This document shows positions 23,327-29,036 of a DNA stretch of 64,000 nucleotides, piece after piece. Within the stretch, counting starts at the first letter, position 1; each line of letters starts with the position of its first letter. Source of the stretch: Paracoccaceae bacterium (GTDB lineage Bacteria > Pseudomonadota > Alphaproteobacteria > Rhodobacterales > Rhodobacteraceae). The notes beneath the pieces were generated by a model that was given only the letters and a program-made list of their open reading frames with translations, did no database searches and was not told the DNA's origin. The translations under genes and the position numbers were made by a program. The stretch spans positions 17,923-81,922 of the forward strand of contig JAOTXT010000010.1 of assembly GCA_029862205.1 (NCBI GenBank). Reading direction: 5' to 3'.

Positions 23327-23405
23327 GGAGCCTCCTTAAGCGTTGCTGGCGCGAATAAATCAGCTTATCCCGGGCCAAGACAAGGAAAAGCCTGCGAGAG
23401 GTTCG

Positions 23406-24779
23406 ATGAGCATTGAGAGTGCGATTACCGAGTTGGCCCCGCATTTCGGTGACCGGCTGAGCCAGGCCGAAAGCGTGCGCGAACAGCACGGGCACGACGA
23501 GGCGCATCACCGCCCGCGACTGCCCGACGCGGTAATCTGGCCCCACTCGACCGAGGAAGTGGCGCTGGTCGCGCGCACCTGCAACGAGCATGGCTGCCCA
23601 ATCGTGCCCTGGGGCACCGGCACCTCGCTGGAAGGCCATGTGATCCCCGTCCAGGGTGGGATCAGCCTGGATTTCACCCAGATGGACAAGGTGCTGGCAG
23701 TCCATTCGGAAGACATGGACGTAGTCGTGCAGCCCGGTATCCAGCGCATCCGGCTGAACGAGGAGCTGCGCGAGACCGGGCTCTTCTTCCCGGTCGATCC
23801 GGGTGCGGACGCCTCGATCGGCGGCATGGCGGCGACGCGGGCGTCCGGCACCTGCGCGGTGCGCTATGGCACGATGCGCGAGGCGGTGCTGGCGCTGGAG
23901 GTGGTGCTGGCGGATGGGCGGGTAATCCGGACCGGCAGCCGCGCCCGGAAATCCGCGGCCGGCTATGACCTGACAAAGCTCTTCGTCGGCTCGGAAGGGA
24001 CGCTCGGGATCATCACCGAGCTGACCTTGCGCCTTCACGGCGTGCCCGAGGCGGTGGCGGCGGCGACTTGCGCCTTCGAGGCCATGGAGGACGCGGTCAA
24101 CACGGTGATCGAGACCATCCAGATGGGAGTGCCGATCGCCCGGATCGAGCTGTTGGACGCGCTGTCGATCAAGGGCTTCAACGGGCACGCGGGCTACGAC
24201 ATGCCGGAATTGCCGACCTTGTTCCTGGAGTTCCAAGGGTCGGAGGCCGGCGTGGCCGAGCAGTCCGAGACCGTGGGCGTGATCGCCGAGGAGCACCGGG
24301 GCCGTGGTTTCGAATGGACCACGAGACCTGAGGAGCGCAACCGCCTGTGGTCGGCGCGGCACAATATCTTCTACGCCCAGCAGTCGCTCAGACCCGGGGC
24401 GAAGGGCTACGTGACGGATGTCTGCGTGCCGATCTCGCGGCTGGCCGAGGCGATCCTGGAGACCAATGAGGACCTGGACGCAAGCCCGCTGATCGCGCCC
24501 CTGGTCGGCCATGTCGGCGATGGGAACTTCCACCTGGCGCTGCTCATCGACCCGGACGACCCGGCGGAGAGATCGGAGGCCGAACGGGTGGGTGCCCGCA
24601 TCTCCGAGCGCGCCATCCGGCTCGGCGGCACGGTGACGGGAGAGCATGGGGTGGGCCTGGGCAAGCGCAAGTTCATGGAGGCCGAGCACGGGGAGGCCTG
24701 GGCGGTGATGGGCGAGATCAAGCGGACCCTGGACCCGAGGGGGATTCTCAATCCGGGCAAGATCGTGCCCGGGAATTGA
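23406..24779 (+). CDS. FAD-binding oxidoreductase, D-lactate dehydrogenase/GlcD type
   Basis: 457 residues. An FAD-binding PCMH domain carries VPWGTGTSLEGHVIPVQGG near residue 75 and AAGYDLTKLFVGSEGTLG near 183. The C-terminal cap domain ends with GHVGDGNFHLALLIDPDD near 375 and EHGVGLGKRKFM near 415, the pattern of membrane-linked D-lactate dehydrogenase (cytochrome). It likely oxidises a D-2-hydroxy acid and feeds the respiratory chain. The open frame starts 21 codons earlier, but the ATG at 23406 follows GAGAGG and fits the family. A palindromic terminator follows. Confidence 0.9.
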   Translation: MSIESAITELAPHFGDRLSQAESVREQHGHDEAHHRPRLPDAVIWPHSTEEVALVARTCNEHGCPIVPWGTGTSLEGHVIPVQGGISLDFTQMDKVLAVHSEDMDVVVQPGIQRIRLNEELRETGLFFPVDPGADASIGGMAATRASGTCAVRYGTMREAVLALEVVLADGRVIRTGSRARKSAAGYDLTKLFVGSEGTLGIITELTLRLHGVPEAVAAATCAFEAMEDAVNTVIETIQMGVPIARIELLDALSIKGFNGHAGYDMPELPTLFLEFQGSEAGVAEQSETVGVIAEEHRGRGFEWTTRPEERNRLWSARHNIFYAQQSLRPGAKGYVTDVCVPISRLAEAILETNEDLDASPLIAPLVGHVGDGNFHLALLIDPDDPAERSEAERVGARISERAIRLGGTVTGEHGVGLGKRKFMEAEHGEAWAVMGEIKRTLDPRGILNPGKIVPGN

Positions 24780-24789
24780 GGGATCTCAC

Positions 24790-24811
24790 AGGCTCTCACA
24801 TGTGAGAGCCT
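24790..24811 (+). terminator. Perfect palindrome after the flavoprotein gene
   Basis: AGGCTCTCACA followed directly by its complement TGTGAGAGCCT forms a 22-base perfect palindrome 10 bases after the stop codon. A run GTTTTT follows about 15 bases later. Likely an intrinsic or stabilising terminator. Confidence 0.65.
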
Positions 24812-25239
24812 TATGAGCCGATTGTTTTTAAACGGTAATTCGAGATCTTTACCGATTCTTCACGGTTGGCGCGCGCTCCGTGGCTTTCCGGCGCAACGGG
24901 TTTCGGCCGGCGATCGGCCTGATGCTGCGGCGGATCGGTGGAACCACGGCGGGCAAATCCGGTTGCGTTGATTGTGGGCTCTGACGAGCCCACCCTACGG
25001 GGCTGGTGAAACCTACGGACATAGCCTTCCGGCCAATAACGGTCGAATTTGCGGGTGCAGCTTAAGGTTTGGATTGAGCCCGAACTACAAAATGCTGCAC
25101 CGCATCCGAATGGCAGCAATGGGCGGCAAGCCGGACGCTCGGAGAGTGCGCGCTACGTGTACTTCTGACCCAATGCGGACATTCGTCACGTTTCACATGG
25201 GTCCGCTGAGGTCTTAGCACGCGTGAGACATAGCGCGGC
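24812..25239. other. 428 bases without a credible gene; one short hairpin
   Basis: No frame here has coding character or a ribosome site. The stretch holds a perfect hairpin GTGGGCTC-TGAC-GAGCCCAC (24974-24993) followed by CCTAC, resembling the end of the REP-like element at 3643-3715. Near 25172 there is a GCGGACATTCG motif similar to ones in the other flank of the island (27035, 27081). It looks like decayed intergenic sequence bordering the accessory island. Confidence 0.6.
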
Positions 25240-25743
25240 CTACTCATCATTTTTGGATGGTTGTTCTTTCCTTGAGGATTTCGCGTCAGGCTTCTCACTC
25301 GTGTGCGAGATGAACGGCATCTCTTCCTCTGCCGAGTAGCGAAGAACAAACGATGCGACTGCCAGTATCAATGTCGCGCCTGCAATTGTAAGCAGACGTT
25401 CGTTCGTCATGTCCTTGATGTTCAGCGAACTGGCAAGTGACCGCGTCATCACGGTGATCGCGACGTAGAGCAGAAACTGAACCGGCAATCTATTGGTCTT
25501 GAAGTAGATGCCGACCATCGCACCCAATTCCAGGAAGATGAACAAGAGGAGTATGTCCTCGACGCTTGCCGCCCCCTTTTCCATCATACCGAGATAAGCA
25601 TCAATGGCTGACCAGACGATTGTCGCGCCGATTGCAAACAATGCAACCAGTTGAAAGCCATCAACCATATGATTGCCGAGTCGCTCAGCAACAGTCTCTG
25701 CTTTGTCAGCCGTTTGATCAACGAAATCAACGATCTTCGACAT
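25240..25743 (-). CDS. PsiE-family membrane protein
   Basis: 167 residues with four predicted membrane helices (about 28-49, 62-81, 87-104 and 116-135) and polar, charged ends. The middle part (VEDILLLFIFLELGAMVGIY, then LPVQFLLYVAITVMTRS) lines up with E. coli phosphate-starvation-inducible PsiE, of unknown function; the cytoplasmic N-terminus is longer here. The ATG at 25743 has AAGGAG six bases upstream; the longer open frame lacks this. It lies 44 bases after a cyclase-like gene on the same strand, so the two probably form an operon. Base composition is clearly less GC-rich than the surroundings, which suggests transfer. Confidence 0.78.
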   Translation of the reverse strand: MSKIVDFVDQTADKAETVAERLGNHMVDGFQLVALFAIGATIVWSAIDAYLGMMEKGAASVEDILLLFIFLELGAMVGIYFKTNRLPVQFLLYVAITVMTRSLASSLNIKDMTNERLLTIAGATLILAVASFVLRYSAEEEMPFISHTSEKPDAKSSRKEQPSKNDE

Positions 25744-25787
25744 TTTCCACTCCTTCTTGTGCAGCGGCGATTTATTCTGCAGCTTGT

Positions 25788-26750
25788 TCACCCTTTCACT
25801 CGATCAACGCCATAAAAGCCCTCGCGGGCAAGGAAGGCGCGGGTCGAGGCGAGATAGTCGATTAGATCTTTGTCGGGGAGGTAGATTTCTTCGCGTAGGG
25901 TATGCATGGAATAGAGATGCCAGACCTCGTAATCGTGATCTATCCCTGTCATTTCGTGAGCAGGTATGATCTCCCGAGATGCAACGCACTTGCCCGCAAA
26001 TTGCACATCCACGCCGTCTTCGCTGCCCGTTTGATACACTCCGACCCTCGGTCGCGGTTGGGTGAGCTGCACGCCCAGTCTTTTCCAGAGAGTAGATCCG
26101 ACGCTGACAAGTCGCGGCTTGCAGGCCTTCGCGGTTCGAAAGAACCGGTCAACCTGCATGCCCACATAGTCTGATCTGGCAACACCCAGAAGCTCTTTGG
26201 TGACTGGTCGCGCCGGCCTGAAGTTGAGCCCGTTGCACAGCGCCGCATAGTCACCGGGGTCAATTTCCGATAGTCGTGCTTCACTCCCGAGAAAACCCAT
26301 GATCTTGTTTTCGAAGTGATCGTATCTTCGGTCCGGAAGATGCAATGCATTGGTAACGAGGTCGACGAGCGCTTTCAGTGAAAGATCGAAATCGAACTTG
26401 GCGCCTAAGCTCTCGTCACCGAAGCTTAGCTTTCTCGGCTGCGCCAAAACATCCAGTAGCCCTGAAATGAAGGCATTTCCGACCGCGCGAAGTTCATCTT
26501 CGTTGCCATCATCGACATCGTAAACAAACCAGTACTCGTCACCAATAATCTTTACTAAAAATAACCTTCTAATGTCTATTGCGCCACTTTCACAAACAAA
26601 CCGATAAAAGGATTCCTCTATTTCAAACAAATTTTGAACGTATAATTCGTAAAGCTTATTAATTATTTTGAAATCATGATTTCCATATCGAAACATCTCC
26701 CGTTTCAAAGGCGTTGACCCAACTAGGTCAAGAGATATGGAAACAAACAT
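25788..26750 (-). CDS. Divergent class III nucleotidyl-cyclase-like protein
   Basis: 320 residues. I see a class III cyclase core: MFVSISLDLVGST (Asp8 in the first metal position), VKIIGDEYWFVYD (Lys67 and Asp71, the base-contact and second metal positions), and SDYVGMQVDRFFRTAK, where Asp194, Asp201 and Arg205 match the D-x-W-G-x-x-V-N-x-x-x-R pattern, with Asp replacing the usual Asn. About 115 residues are inserted between the second and third motifs. The last 90 residues match nothing I know. The start has GGAGG eight bases upstream. The gene is AT-rich, most of all at its 5-prime end, unlike the rest of the window. Activity is plausible but unproven; it could also be a degenerate sensor. 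Confidence 0.6.
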   Translation of the reverse strand: MFVSISLDLVGSTPLKREMFRYGNHDFKIINKLYELYVQNLFEIEESFYRFVCESGAIDIRRLFLVKIIGDEYWFVYDVDDGNEDELRAVGNAFISGLLDVLAQPRKLSFGDESLGAKFDFDLSLKALVDLVTNALHLPDRRYDHFENKIMGFLGSEARLSEIDPGDYAALCNGLNFRPARPVTKELLGVARSDYVGMQVDRFFRTAKACKPRLVSVGSTLWKRLGVQLTQPRPRVGVYQTGSEDGVDVQFAGKCVASREIIPAHEMTGIDHDYEVWHLYSMHTLREEIYLPDKDLIDYLASTRAFLAREGFYGVDRVKG

Positions 26751-27173
26751 GTTAAGAGCCTCCGTTGCGCCAAAGCGTCGAACGCGAGCGCAGCGATTCC
26801 CCCTCAACTCCATGTCTGTACCAGCCATGCGCTGACCACAGAAACCATAGACTCATCGCTGAAGGAGCGCAAAGCCGCAGGCTGACAGAGCAATCATGAT
26901 CCGGCGATGGTAAGCCACCGGACTCACCAATGAGCGACTCTTCGGCTAATCATCGGATGTCGCGCTGCCGACCGCGAAGGTCTCTTCATGGCACGAGACC
27001 GACATAGCCCCTACGGCAGTAATCGGGATCAAACCGGACATTTGAGAACGTTGCCTAAACGACCGCTTCGTCCCGCACAGCGGACAATTGCCCGTGTGTC
27101 AGATACGGTCATTCTTGCGCACCGCCCCTAATCGGAAGGCGGAACATGGTCCACCCCACGGAGCCGCGCCTGA
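26751..27173. other. 423 bases with no gene seen
   Basis: The stretch contains the promoter side of the cyclase-like gene and the 3-prime side of the recN operon. No frame has coding character. Motifs CCGGACATTTG (27035) and GCGGACAATTG (27081) resemble one beyond the other end of the island at 25172. It looks like decayed sequence of a former gene or element; no insertion-sequence ends or att repeats could be recognised. Confidence 0.55.
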
Positions 27174-27332
27174 TCACCGGATCGCGCGCAGGACCAGAAA
27201 AACCACCACCACCAAGGCCGCGCCCCAGGGGCTGAGCATGAAGTTGATATAGCCGCCCGCCACCGTCTCGCCGCCTGCGCCGACCGCGTCCGCGGTGCCC
27301 TGACCCGCCTTCTTCAGGACCGTATCCAGCAT
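27174..27332 (-). CDS. 52-residue membrane protein translationally coupled to recN
   Basis: The ORF starts MLDTVLKKAGQGTADAVGAG and ends with one strong membrane helix (WGAALVVVVFLVLRAI). Its ATG shares one base with the recN stop (TGATG), the same coupling seen elsewhere in this operon. A glycine/alanine-rich stretch precedes the helix. I do not recognise a family. The start overlap, clean membrane segment and GC-rich codon use favour a real gene. Confidence 0.65.
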   Translation of the reverse strand: MLDTVLKKAGQGTADAVGAGGETVAGGYINFMLSPWGAALVVVVFLVLRAIR

Positions 27333-28990
27333 CAGGCAGCGCCCTCCATGAGCGCCCGGGCGGCCGAGCGTGCTTCTGGCGTCACGGTCTCGCCCGCCAG
27401 CATCCGGGCGATCTCGTCGACGCGTAGGTCCGGGTCCAGCGCGTCGACATCGGTCCGGGTCAGGCGCCCGTCGCTGGTCTTGGCGATCCGCCAGTGATGG
27501 GCGCCGCGCGCGGCGACCTGGGGGCTGTGGGTGACGACCAATACCTGGGCGGTCCCGGCCAGCCCGGCCAGGCGCCGACCAACGGCATCCGCCGTGGCGC
27601 CGCCGATGCCCCGGTCGATCTCGTCGAAGATCATGGTCAATCCGGGCGCCCGCGCCGCCAGGCAGACCTTGAGCGCCAGCAGAAACCGCGACAGCTCGCC
27701 GCCCGAGGCGATCCGGTCGATCGGTCCGGCCGGCGTGCCGGGGTTGATGCTGGCGGTGAACGCCACGTCGTCCACGCCTTCCGGGCCTTCCCGGCCGGGC
27801 GCGATCCGCGTCTCGAAGGCGGCGTTCTCCATCTTCAGTGGCGCCAGTTCCTTGGTCACGCGCTTGTCGAGCTTCGCCACCGCCGCCTCGCGGGCCTTGG
27901 TCAGCGCACCGGCCGCCTTGCTATAGGCCTCGCGCGCGGCCCCGGCCTCGGTCTTCAGATCGGCAATCCGCGCATCGCCCAAATCGATCTCCTGCATGCG
28001 ATCGGCGAAATCCTCCGCCAGCTTCGGGAGGTCATCCGGTGCCACGTTGTGCTTGCGCGCGAGGCCGCGGATCGCGAAGAGCCGCTCCTCGACCTCGTCG
28101 AGCCGGCCCGGATCGAAGCTGAGCCGGTCGAGCGCATCCTCGACGCCGCGCTGCGCCTCGCCAAGGGCGACCAGCGCCCGGTCGATTGCCTCCACCGGCG
28201 CGTCGAGCAGGCCGTCGGCCTTGTCCGCCGCGTGGCCAAGCCGCGAAAGCGCGTCGCCCAGCATGCCCTCGGCGGCCTCGGGCGAGAGCGCCTGGGCCGC
28301 CTGGCCGATCTCGTCGCGGATCCGCGCGGCTGCCTTAATCAGGCGGCGTTCCGCGTCGAGTGCGTCATCCTCGCCCGGCTCAGGGGCCAGCTTCTCGAGT
28401 TCCGCCACGCTGTGGCGCAGGAAATCGGCGTCCCCGGCGGCGCGCGTCAGGGTATCCTCGGCCTCGGTCAGGCGTTTGGCCGCCGCTTGCGCCGCTTCCC
28501 AATTCGCCCGCGTTTCGGCCAGTTTTCGCTCGTGGCCACCAAGAGCATCGAGCAGTGCACGGTGACCACGCGGGTTCAAGAGCCCCCGGTCATCGTGCTG
28601 GCCATGCACCTCGACCAGGGTCCCGCCGATCTGACGCAGGGCCTCGGCGCTGGTGCGCTGGTCGTTGACGAAGCCCCGCGCCGGGCCGTCCTTGGCCGCG
28701 ATCCTGCGGAGCACCAGCTCCCCCTCGCCCGCGTCGAGGCCAAGATCGGCCATAATACCGGCCGCGGGGTGATCGGGCTCGACCGCGAAGACCGCGGTCA
28801 CGGTTGCCTGGTCGCCGGCGGCCCCCACCAGGTCGCGCCCGCCCTGGCGGCCGAGCGCGAATCCCAGTGCATCAAGCAGGATAGATTTGCCGGCCCCCGT
28901 TTCGCCGGTCAACACGTTGAGCCCAGGCTGGAAATCCAAAGTCAGCGCCTCGATCAGGACAATGTTCCTGATTTCGAGGCTCAGCAGCAT
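27332..28990 (-). CDS. recN: DNA repair protein RecN
   Basis: 552 residues, normal for this SMC-like ATPase of double-strand-break repair. Walker A is GETGAGKSILLDALGF near residue 28, a long coiled-coil-rich middle spans about 150-350, and signature plus Walker B read ASGGELSRFLLALK and MIFDEIDRGIGGATA near 440-480. The open frame runs 20 codons further upstream through a proline/glycine-rich repeat; the ATG at 28990 gives the standard MLLSLEIRNIVLIE start. It follows bamD by 46 bases and is followed directly by the 52-residue ORF. Confidence 0.95.
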   Translation of the reverse strand: MLLSLEIRNIVLIEALTLDFQPGLNVLTGETGAGKSILLDALGFALGRQGGRDLVGAAGDQATVTAVFAVEPDHPAAGIMADLGLDAGEGELVLRRIAAKDGPARGFVNDQRTSAEALRQIGGTLVEVHGQHDDRGLLNPRGHRALLDALGGHERKLAETRANWEAAQAAAKRLTEAEDTLTRAAGDADFLRHSVAELEKLAPEPGEDDALDAERRLIKAAARIRDEIGQAAQALSPEAAEGMLGDALSRLGHAADKADGLLDAPVEAIDRALVALGEAQRGVEDALDRLSFDPGRLDEVEERLFAIRGLARKHNVAPDDLPKLAEDFADRMQEIDLGDARIADLKTEAGAAREAYSKAAGALTKAREAAVAKLDKRVTKELAPLKMENAAFETRIAPGREGPEGVDDVAFTASINPGTPAGPIDRIASGGELSRFLLALKVCLAARAPGLTMIFDEIDRGIGGATADAVGRRLAGLAGTAQVLVVTHSPQVAARGAHHWRIAKTSDGRLTRTDVDALDPDLRVDEIARMLAGETVTPEARSAARALMEGAA

Positions 28991-29036
28991 GGCGCGACAG
29001 CCCGGACCCCAACCCGGGCCCCAACCCGGTCCACGT

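What the first reader, a model, noticed from the sequence alone, without database searches (positions are those of the whole stretch)
25240..26750. Two-gene AT-rich island: class III cyclase-like protein plus PsiE-family membrane protein
The upstream gene keeps most class III cyclase positions (Asp8, Lys67, Asp71, Asp194, Arg205) but with Asp201 in place of the usual Asn, an insertion of about 115 residues, and an unknown 90-residue C-terminus. It is paired, 44 bases apart and with strong ribosome sites on both, with a four-helix PsiE-family protein of unknown function. The pair is unlike its surroundings in base composition and lies after recN between decayed spacers. A single-domain cyclase plus membrane protein on an island recalls the logic of Pycsar-type nucleotide-signalling defence, but no cyclic-nucleotide-binding domain is visible. 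The pairing and its role are inference.
Basis: partly seen in the sequence, partly recalled or inferred. Interest (0 to 1): 0.75.

Follow-up and report, generated by a model that had tools for sequence, protein, structure and literature searches.

The report
Mobile cyclase–PsiE membrane signalling pair
Two neighbouring genes, an extra block missing from two near relatives, encode a protein predicted to fold like the enzymes that make cyclic-nucleotide messengers and a small protein of the PsiE membrane family; relatives of both genes sit side by side in at least one other bacterium, and together they likely form a signal-and-response module, possibly against phages.

The parts
25788..26750 (-). 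320-aa predicted class III-fold nucleotidyl cyclase; Asp8, Lys67, Asp71, Asp194, Asp201 (in place of Asn), Arg205
25240..25743 (-). 167-aa PsiE-family (PF06146) membrane protein, four hydrophobic segments, start 44 nt after the cyclase stop
   Evidence: Pfam 72.6 bits, cut-off 23.9; hydropathy segments 25-54, 57-84, 86-104, 115-138
24780..27331 (.). extra block between the FAD-oxidase gene and recN that holds the pair and two flanks in which no gene was named
   Evidence: in L035 and L036 (the two other same-genus genomes listed) recN is followed 185 and 384 nt on by the FAD oxidase, with no tblastn match to cyclase or PsiE
27332..29008 (-). recN, the gene on one side of the block
   Evidence: NCBIfam TIGR00634, 462.5 bits, cut-off 407.9
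23343..24779 (+). GlcD-like FAD-linked oxidase gene on the other side of the block
   Evidence: TIGR00387 342.8 bits, under its cut-off of 567.9; synteny

Best explanation
A two-gene block, absent at the same site in two same-genus genomes, encodes a protein predicted to be a class III-fold nucleotidyl cyclase and, 44 bases behind it, a PsiE-family membrane protein, and the two would work as a nucleotide-signalling pair in which the cyclase's product likely switches the PsiE protein, possibly to halt growth of phage-infected cells. Shown by calls: the two genes, their deviant composition, the empty site, the invariant residues, adjacency of relatives in one further genome and linked occurrence of homologues; the fold is a prediction. 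Inferred: the cyclase is active and homodimeric (class III active sites form between two subunits, recalled); the substrate is most likely ATP, because Lys67 and Asp194 match the pair that selects adenine in adenylyl cyclases (recalled); an unknown cue, perhaps phage infection, starts synthesis; the product, or the cyclase itself, acts on PsiE, perhaps at its conserved KTNRLP segment; PsiE then perturbs the membrane. Asp201 in place of Asn would alter how the ribose is held (role recalled) and may give unusual kinetics or an unusual product.
Against: Profile-profile comparison with 20 own-genome PF00211 domains is weak: probability at most 21% (E 0.0011) for the N-half, at most 1.3% for the C-half, at most 10% for the whole. 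No cyclic-nucleotide-binding domain in PsiE. L002 (3.3 kb) carries the cyclase without PsiE on that contig; the PsiE of that genome is a very divergent long branch on another contig. Only 5 of the 18 non-own cyclase clusters on contigs of 3 kb or more have a length match, though only the top 120 of 3636 PsiE hits were visible. PsiE homologues on long contigs (for example 50.6, 65, 69 and 287 kb) have no length match to a cyclase. In the PsiE tree the paired label is scattered (7 changes for 9 rows). The defence contexts are two loci of distant relatives without PsiE beside them. Neither gene of the pair hits a PADLOC model; of the five window neighbours scanned only RecN does (33 families, best mad3 at 3.4e-25, read here as shared ATPase fold). 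No cyclase relative was found in phage records, plasmids or viral contigs.
Confidence: 0.42

Rival explanations
1. PsiE is the sensor or membrane anchor and the cyclase is its output: a split membrane-bound class III cyclase in which a four-helix receptor, encoded by its own gene, controls cAMP synthesis for ordinary stress regulation.
For: PsiE is short, strongly conserved over its middle part (16 aligned homologues), and no nucleotide-binding domain was found. Many class III cyclases carry fused membrane domains (recalled), and starts of abstracts listed (PMC4821796, PMC12414865, PMC11606603) describe receptor roles for them. PsiE homologues also occur on long contigs without a matching cyclase length. 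E. coli psiE is listed among CRP targets (PMC3105977, passage).
Against: Known membrane-receptor cyclases are fused to their membrane part (recalled), whereas here the soluble gene is separate and comes first; one distant relative sits between defence genes.
Confidence: 0.33
2. Inverted logic as in Panoptes: the cyclase is always active and its product keeps a toxic PsiE silent; loss of the nucleotide, for example by phage enzymes, releases PsiE.
For: A nucleotide synthase gene beside a small membrane-protein gene, as in mCpol-2TMbeta (PMC12657230, passages).
Against: The published effector binds nucleotide through a beta-barrel domain (same passages); PsiE matches only PF06146 over a cut-off.
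Confidence: 0.1
3. Two stress or signalling genes that travel together on a small mobile block without acting on each other; PsiE works alone.
For: [quoted passage not shown] PsiE homologues are widespread (3636 hits); L002 has the cyclase without PsiE beside it.
Against: 8-nt overlap in L027 and matched divergence of the presumed pairs.
Confidence: 0.12

Closest known systems
Class III adenylyl/guanylyl cyclases (CyaC of Spirulina, soluble guanylate cyclase, Ma1120, Rv1900c)
   Same: Predicted fold over residues 1-282; two metal aspartates, Lys67, Asp194, Arg205; the spacing D-x6-(N/D)-x3-R
   Different: Outside PF00211 by sequence; Asn replaced by Asp201 in all rows with letters; 47-76 extra residues before Asp194 and about 19 between the metal aspartates; conserved GDE-x-W and DRFFR motifs; C-terminal tail of about 38 residues
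Pycsar (PycC + PycTM or PycTIR)
   Same: Single-domain class III-type cyclase encoded beside a membrane protein; clade D residues Lys104 and Phe109 correspond in spacing to Lys67 and Trp74
   Different: The residue two before the first metal Asp (Phe60 in AnPycC, Phe100 in EaPycC) is Ser6 here; no cyclic-nucleotide-binding domain found in the partner; no PADLOC hit
Panoptes (mCpol + 2TMbeta)
   Same: Nucleotide synthase gene with a small membrane-protein gene
   Different: Cas10-type palm enzyme making c-di-AMP and a beta-barrel effector; here a predicted cyclase fold and a four-segment PsiE protein
[quoted passage not shown]
   Same: Pfam family, four hydrophobic segments
   Different: Far below the NCBIfam PsiE equivalog cut-offs (best 28.7 against 145 bits); encoded with a cyclase

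Membership tests
Class III nucleotidyl cyclase (by fold) | Cyclase homology domain fold | tested here: met
Class III nucleotidyl cyclase (by fold) | Two metal-binding aspartates | tested here: met
   Asp8 in 31 of 31 and Asp71 in 32 of 32 rows with letters (34 rows)
Class III nucleotidyl cyclase (by fold) | Transition-state Arg (role recalled) at the usual spacing | tested here: met
   Arg205 in 31 of 31 rows with letters, 4 after position 201, the same step as N to R in the own-genome cyclases
Canonical class III residue set | Asn four residues before that Arg | tested here: not met
   Asp201 in 31 of 31 rows with letters; therefore filed as a divergent cyclase-fold family, not as a canonical class III cyclase
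PF00211 Guanylate_cyc | Score over the Pfam cut-off | tested here: not met
   PF00211 matched none of 25 members at E up to 1
Class III nucleotidyl cyclase (by fold) | Makes a cyclic nucleotide | not testable with these tools
   needs a biochemical assay
Pycsar | Receptor with a cyclic-nucleotide-binding domain fused to TM or TIR | tested here: not met
   167-aa PsiE; Pfam and NCBIfam matches up to E 1 include no such domain
Pycsar | Published pyrimidine-recognition residues | tested here: inconclusive
   Ser6/Lys67/Trp74 against Phe60/Lys104/Phe109 and Phe100/Arg142/Gln144, matched by spacing from the metal aspartates (PMC11224242, passages)
Pycsar | PADLOC model match | tested here: not met
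   0 families for both proteins at E up to 1
Panoptes | Cas10-like palm enzyme | tested here: inconclusive
   no Cas10-type chain among the 50 entries listed; absence from the list excludes nothing
Panoptes | 2TMbeta effector | tested here: not met
   partner is PF06146 with four hydrophobic segments
PsiE family PF06146 | Score over the Pfam cut-off | tested here: met
   72.6 bits against 23.9
PsiE equivalog (NCBIfam) | Score over the equivalog cut-off | tested here: not met
   best 28.7 against 145 bits; five PsiE models, all under their cut-offs

The most novel reading that the evidence does not exclude
The pair founds a new class of nucleotide-signalling defence: an uncharted branch of cyclases with an invariant DRFFR motif (Asp for Asn), paired in some bacteria with a PsiE effector and in others sitting among restriction, reverse-transcriptase or HEPN-like genes, in which PsiE is gated by a cyclic mononucleotide without any known nucleotide-binding domain. 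That would give the PsiE family a mechanism.
Probability: 0.27. Interest if true: 0.82.

Novelty: new variant of a known kind. Interest (0 to 1): 0.57.

Why it matters
The cyclase family is missed by the Pfam, NCBIfam and PADLOC models and by PDB sequence search, yet each catalytic position checked is kept, so model-based annotation overlooks it. If the defence reading is right, it adds a cyclase-plus-membrane-protein format beside Pycsar and Panoptes whose effector lacks a recognisable nucleotide-binding domain.

Tried and rejected
Pycsar membership: rejected on the partner (no cyclic-nucleotide-binding domain) and for lack of a PADLOC hit. Panoptes: rejected on the partner; no Cas10-type chain appeared in the 50 VIA rows listed, which excludes nothing. 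No row named as PycC appeared there either, likewise no exclusion. Degenerate cyclase: disfavoured, as the six positions are invariant. Carriage by phages or plasmids: no match for the cyclase in plasmids, phages or viral contigs, nor for the distant relatives where tried (A5 and the L045 protein in viral contigs, L045 and L044 proteins in plasmids, L045 protein in phages). PsiE in plasmids: 4 Acinetobacter records at 52% over 61% of the query. Flanking repeats as excision scars: the repeat finder gave one 20-nt pair at 80% and one 14-nt palindrome, nothing bounding the block. Promoter and terminator scans were at chance level. PsiE profile against PDB sequences: one match at E 0.45, taken as chance. 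Literature: 2 papers hold both 'PsiE' and 'adenylate cyclase'; psiE was looked up in one of them (PMC3105977), where it stands in a list of CRP targets; the other was seen in the listing only. None of the 10 papers listed for PsiE plus defence terms holds PsiE (10 of 1,050 listed). A plain PsiE search listed 30 of 756 papers, mostly off topic. Tree of PsiE homologues (117 rows: 115 of 120 hits, the 5 under 150 aa dropped, plus 2 genome sequences): all 9 paired rows lie in one 78-row group (support 92/99, not starred, midpoint root), but the label needs 7 changes (4 of 500 shuffles as low), so pairing is scattered inside the group and may be lost or unseen. One search translated minus-strand loci on the wrong strand and was redone. 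In one search the script's pattern mis-picked a site in 5 of 20 control cyclases (L006, L011, L012, L015, L018), which were left out of the spacing ranges. A third genome, G003 of another genus (L037), has bamD-recN and ClC but no tblastn match to the oxidase, the thioesterase-like gene, the cyclase or PsiE, so it says little about the site.

Full report
What is there. Two genes on the minus strand, 25788-26750 (320 aa) and 25240-25743 (167 aa), each with a ribosome-binding site, lie 44 nt apart. Their GC is 0.494; 0 of 625 windows of equal length in the 64 kb are as low, and GC3 is 0.531 and 0.599 against 0.845-0.881 in six neighbouring genes. On one side is recN, followed outward by bamD and ftsZ; on the other a GlcD-like oxidase, a small gene that I call thioesterase-like from recall, and a ClC channel gene (names for the rest).

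An extra block. In the two other same-genus genomes listed, G110 and G227, bamD-recN is followed by the oxidase, thioesterase-like and ClC genes in the same order, 185 and 384 nt behind recN, with no cyclase or PsiE between. The third genome read, G003 of another genus, lacks matches to the oxidase too and says little. The order search found the cyclase only in the own genome (1 of 390), the class search likewise (1 of 385); a scan of genome contigs gave one further locus, L002. The data show presence against absence; gain is more likely than loss because of the composition.

The pairing. L027 (genome G782) holds the end of a cyclase gene, cut by the contig end, overlapping a PsiE gene by 8 nt in the same order. 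The protein database gives no context, but it prints the longest contig of each cluster: 7 of 33 non-own cyclase clusters share the exact length with one of the 119 listed non-own PsiE clusters, against 0.57 expected and a maximum of 5 in 20,000 draws with jittered lengths, a null model of my own choice, and all 7 share a source. Pairwise identities of the eight presumed pairs correlate (r 0.78, 6 of 40,320 permutations as high). This is indirect evidence. Against it: of the 18 non-own cyclase clusters on contigs of 3 kb or more only 5 match (only the best 120 of 3636 PsiE hits are visible), L002 has a cyclase with no PsiE on its 3.3 kb, and the PsiE of that genome is a divergent long branch on another contig. 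None of 10 cyclase-less genomes from the own family that I tested has this PsiE type. In the PsiE tree the paired rows are scattered within one group.

Distant relatives and defence. Two of 398 genomes of the phylum sample, besides the own one, carry distant members. In L045 the relative (309 aa, 28% identical, the key residues kept) lies 3 nt behind hsdS and 31 nt before an RT_UG5-nitrilase gene, with hsdM, PDC-S02 and PDC-S18 genes around it, and a PIN-like gene (under its cut-off) and a gene with a HipA N-terminal domain further on. In L044 the relative (504 aa with an N-terminal extension, 27% identical) follows a 181-aa ORF with an R-x4-H motif like that of HEPN nucleases; this was seen by eye and has no family match. 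Neither has PsiE next to it. The defence link therefore belongs to the wider family and is carried over to the window's pair by inference.

Mechanism. I commit to a nucleotide-signalling pair with PsiE as effector at 0.42. The main rival, PsiE as sensor or anchor, stands at 0.33, because PsiE is small, no nucleotide-binding domain was found in it, and it seems to occur without the cyclase. Bench tests that separate them are listed.

Known or new. Not Pycsar and not Panoptes by their defining partner proteins. The cyclase shares the class III fold by prediction but departs from the canonical residue set and from PF00211. I found no paper on the pairing: two papers hold both 'PsiE' and 'adenylate cyclase', I looked up psiE in one of them and saw the other in the listing only, and the PsiE-plus-defence search listed none with PsiE among 10 of 1,050. 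I rate it a new variant of a known kind.

Noticed in passing
own genome G000: 31 places match the class III cyclase model PF00211 over its cut-off, a large cyclic-nucleotide repertoire, apart from the divergent window protein.
   Followed up: partly
L045:3699-15392: Dense defence island: HsdM, PDC-S02 (DUF1016/YhcG), HsdS, cyclase relative, RT_UG5-nitrilase, PDC-S18, a PIN-like gene under its cut-off and a HipA-domain gene.
   Followed up: partly
L044:3126-5771: Three-gene run: 189-aa unknown, 181-aa protein with an R-x4-H motif like HEPN nucleases (by eye), and a 504-aa cyclase relative with an N-terminal extension that P0033 and P0034 also have.
   Followed up: partly
L027:2696-4841: A chromate efflux transporter gene (TIGR00937 over its cut-off) and an upstream gene that by eye looks like a chromate-resistance partner lie beside the cyclase-PsiE pair.
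   Followed up: no
L040:1172-3033: In genome G770 a very divergent PsiE-like gene lies near a DUF4003 gene, not beside a cyclase.
   Followed up: no
plasmid collection, hits H1-H4: Four Acinetobacter records hold a PsiE relative at 52%; three of these 'plasmid' records are 3.7-4.1 Mb long, so they look like chromosomes.
   Followed up: no
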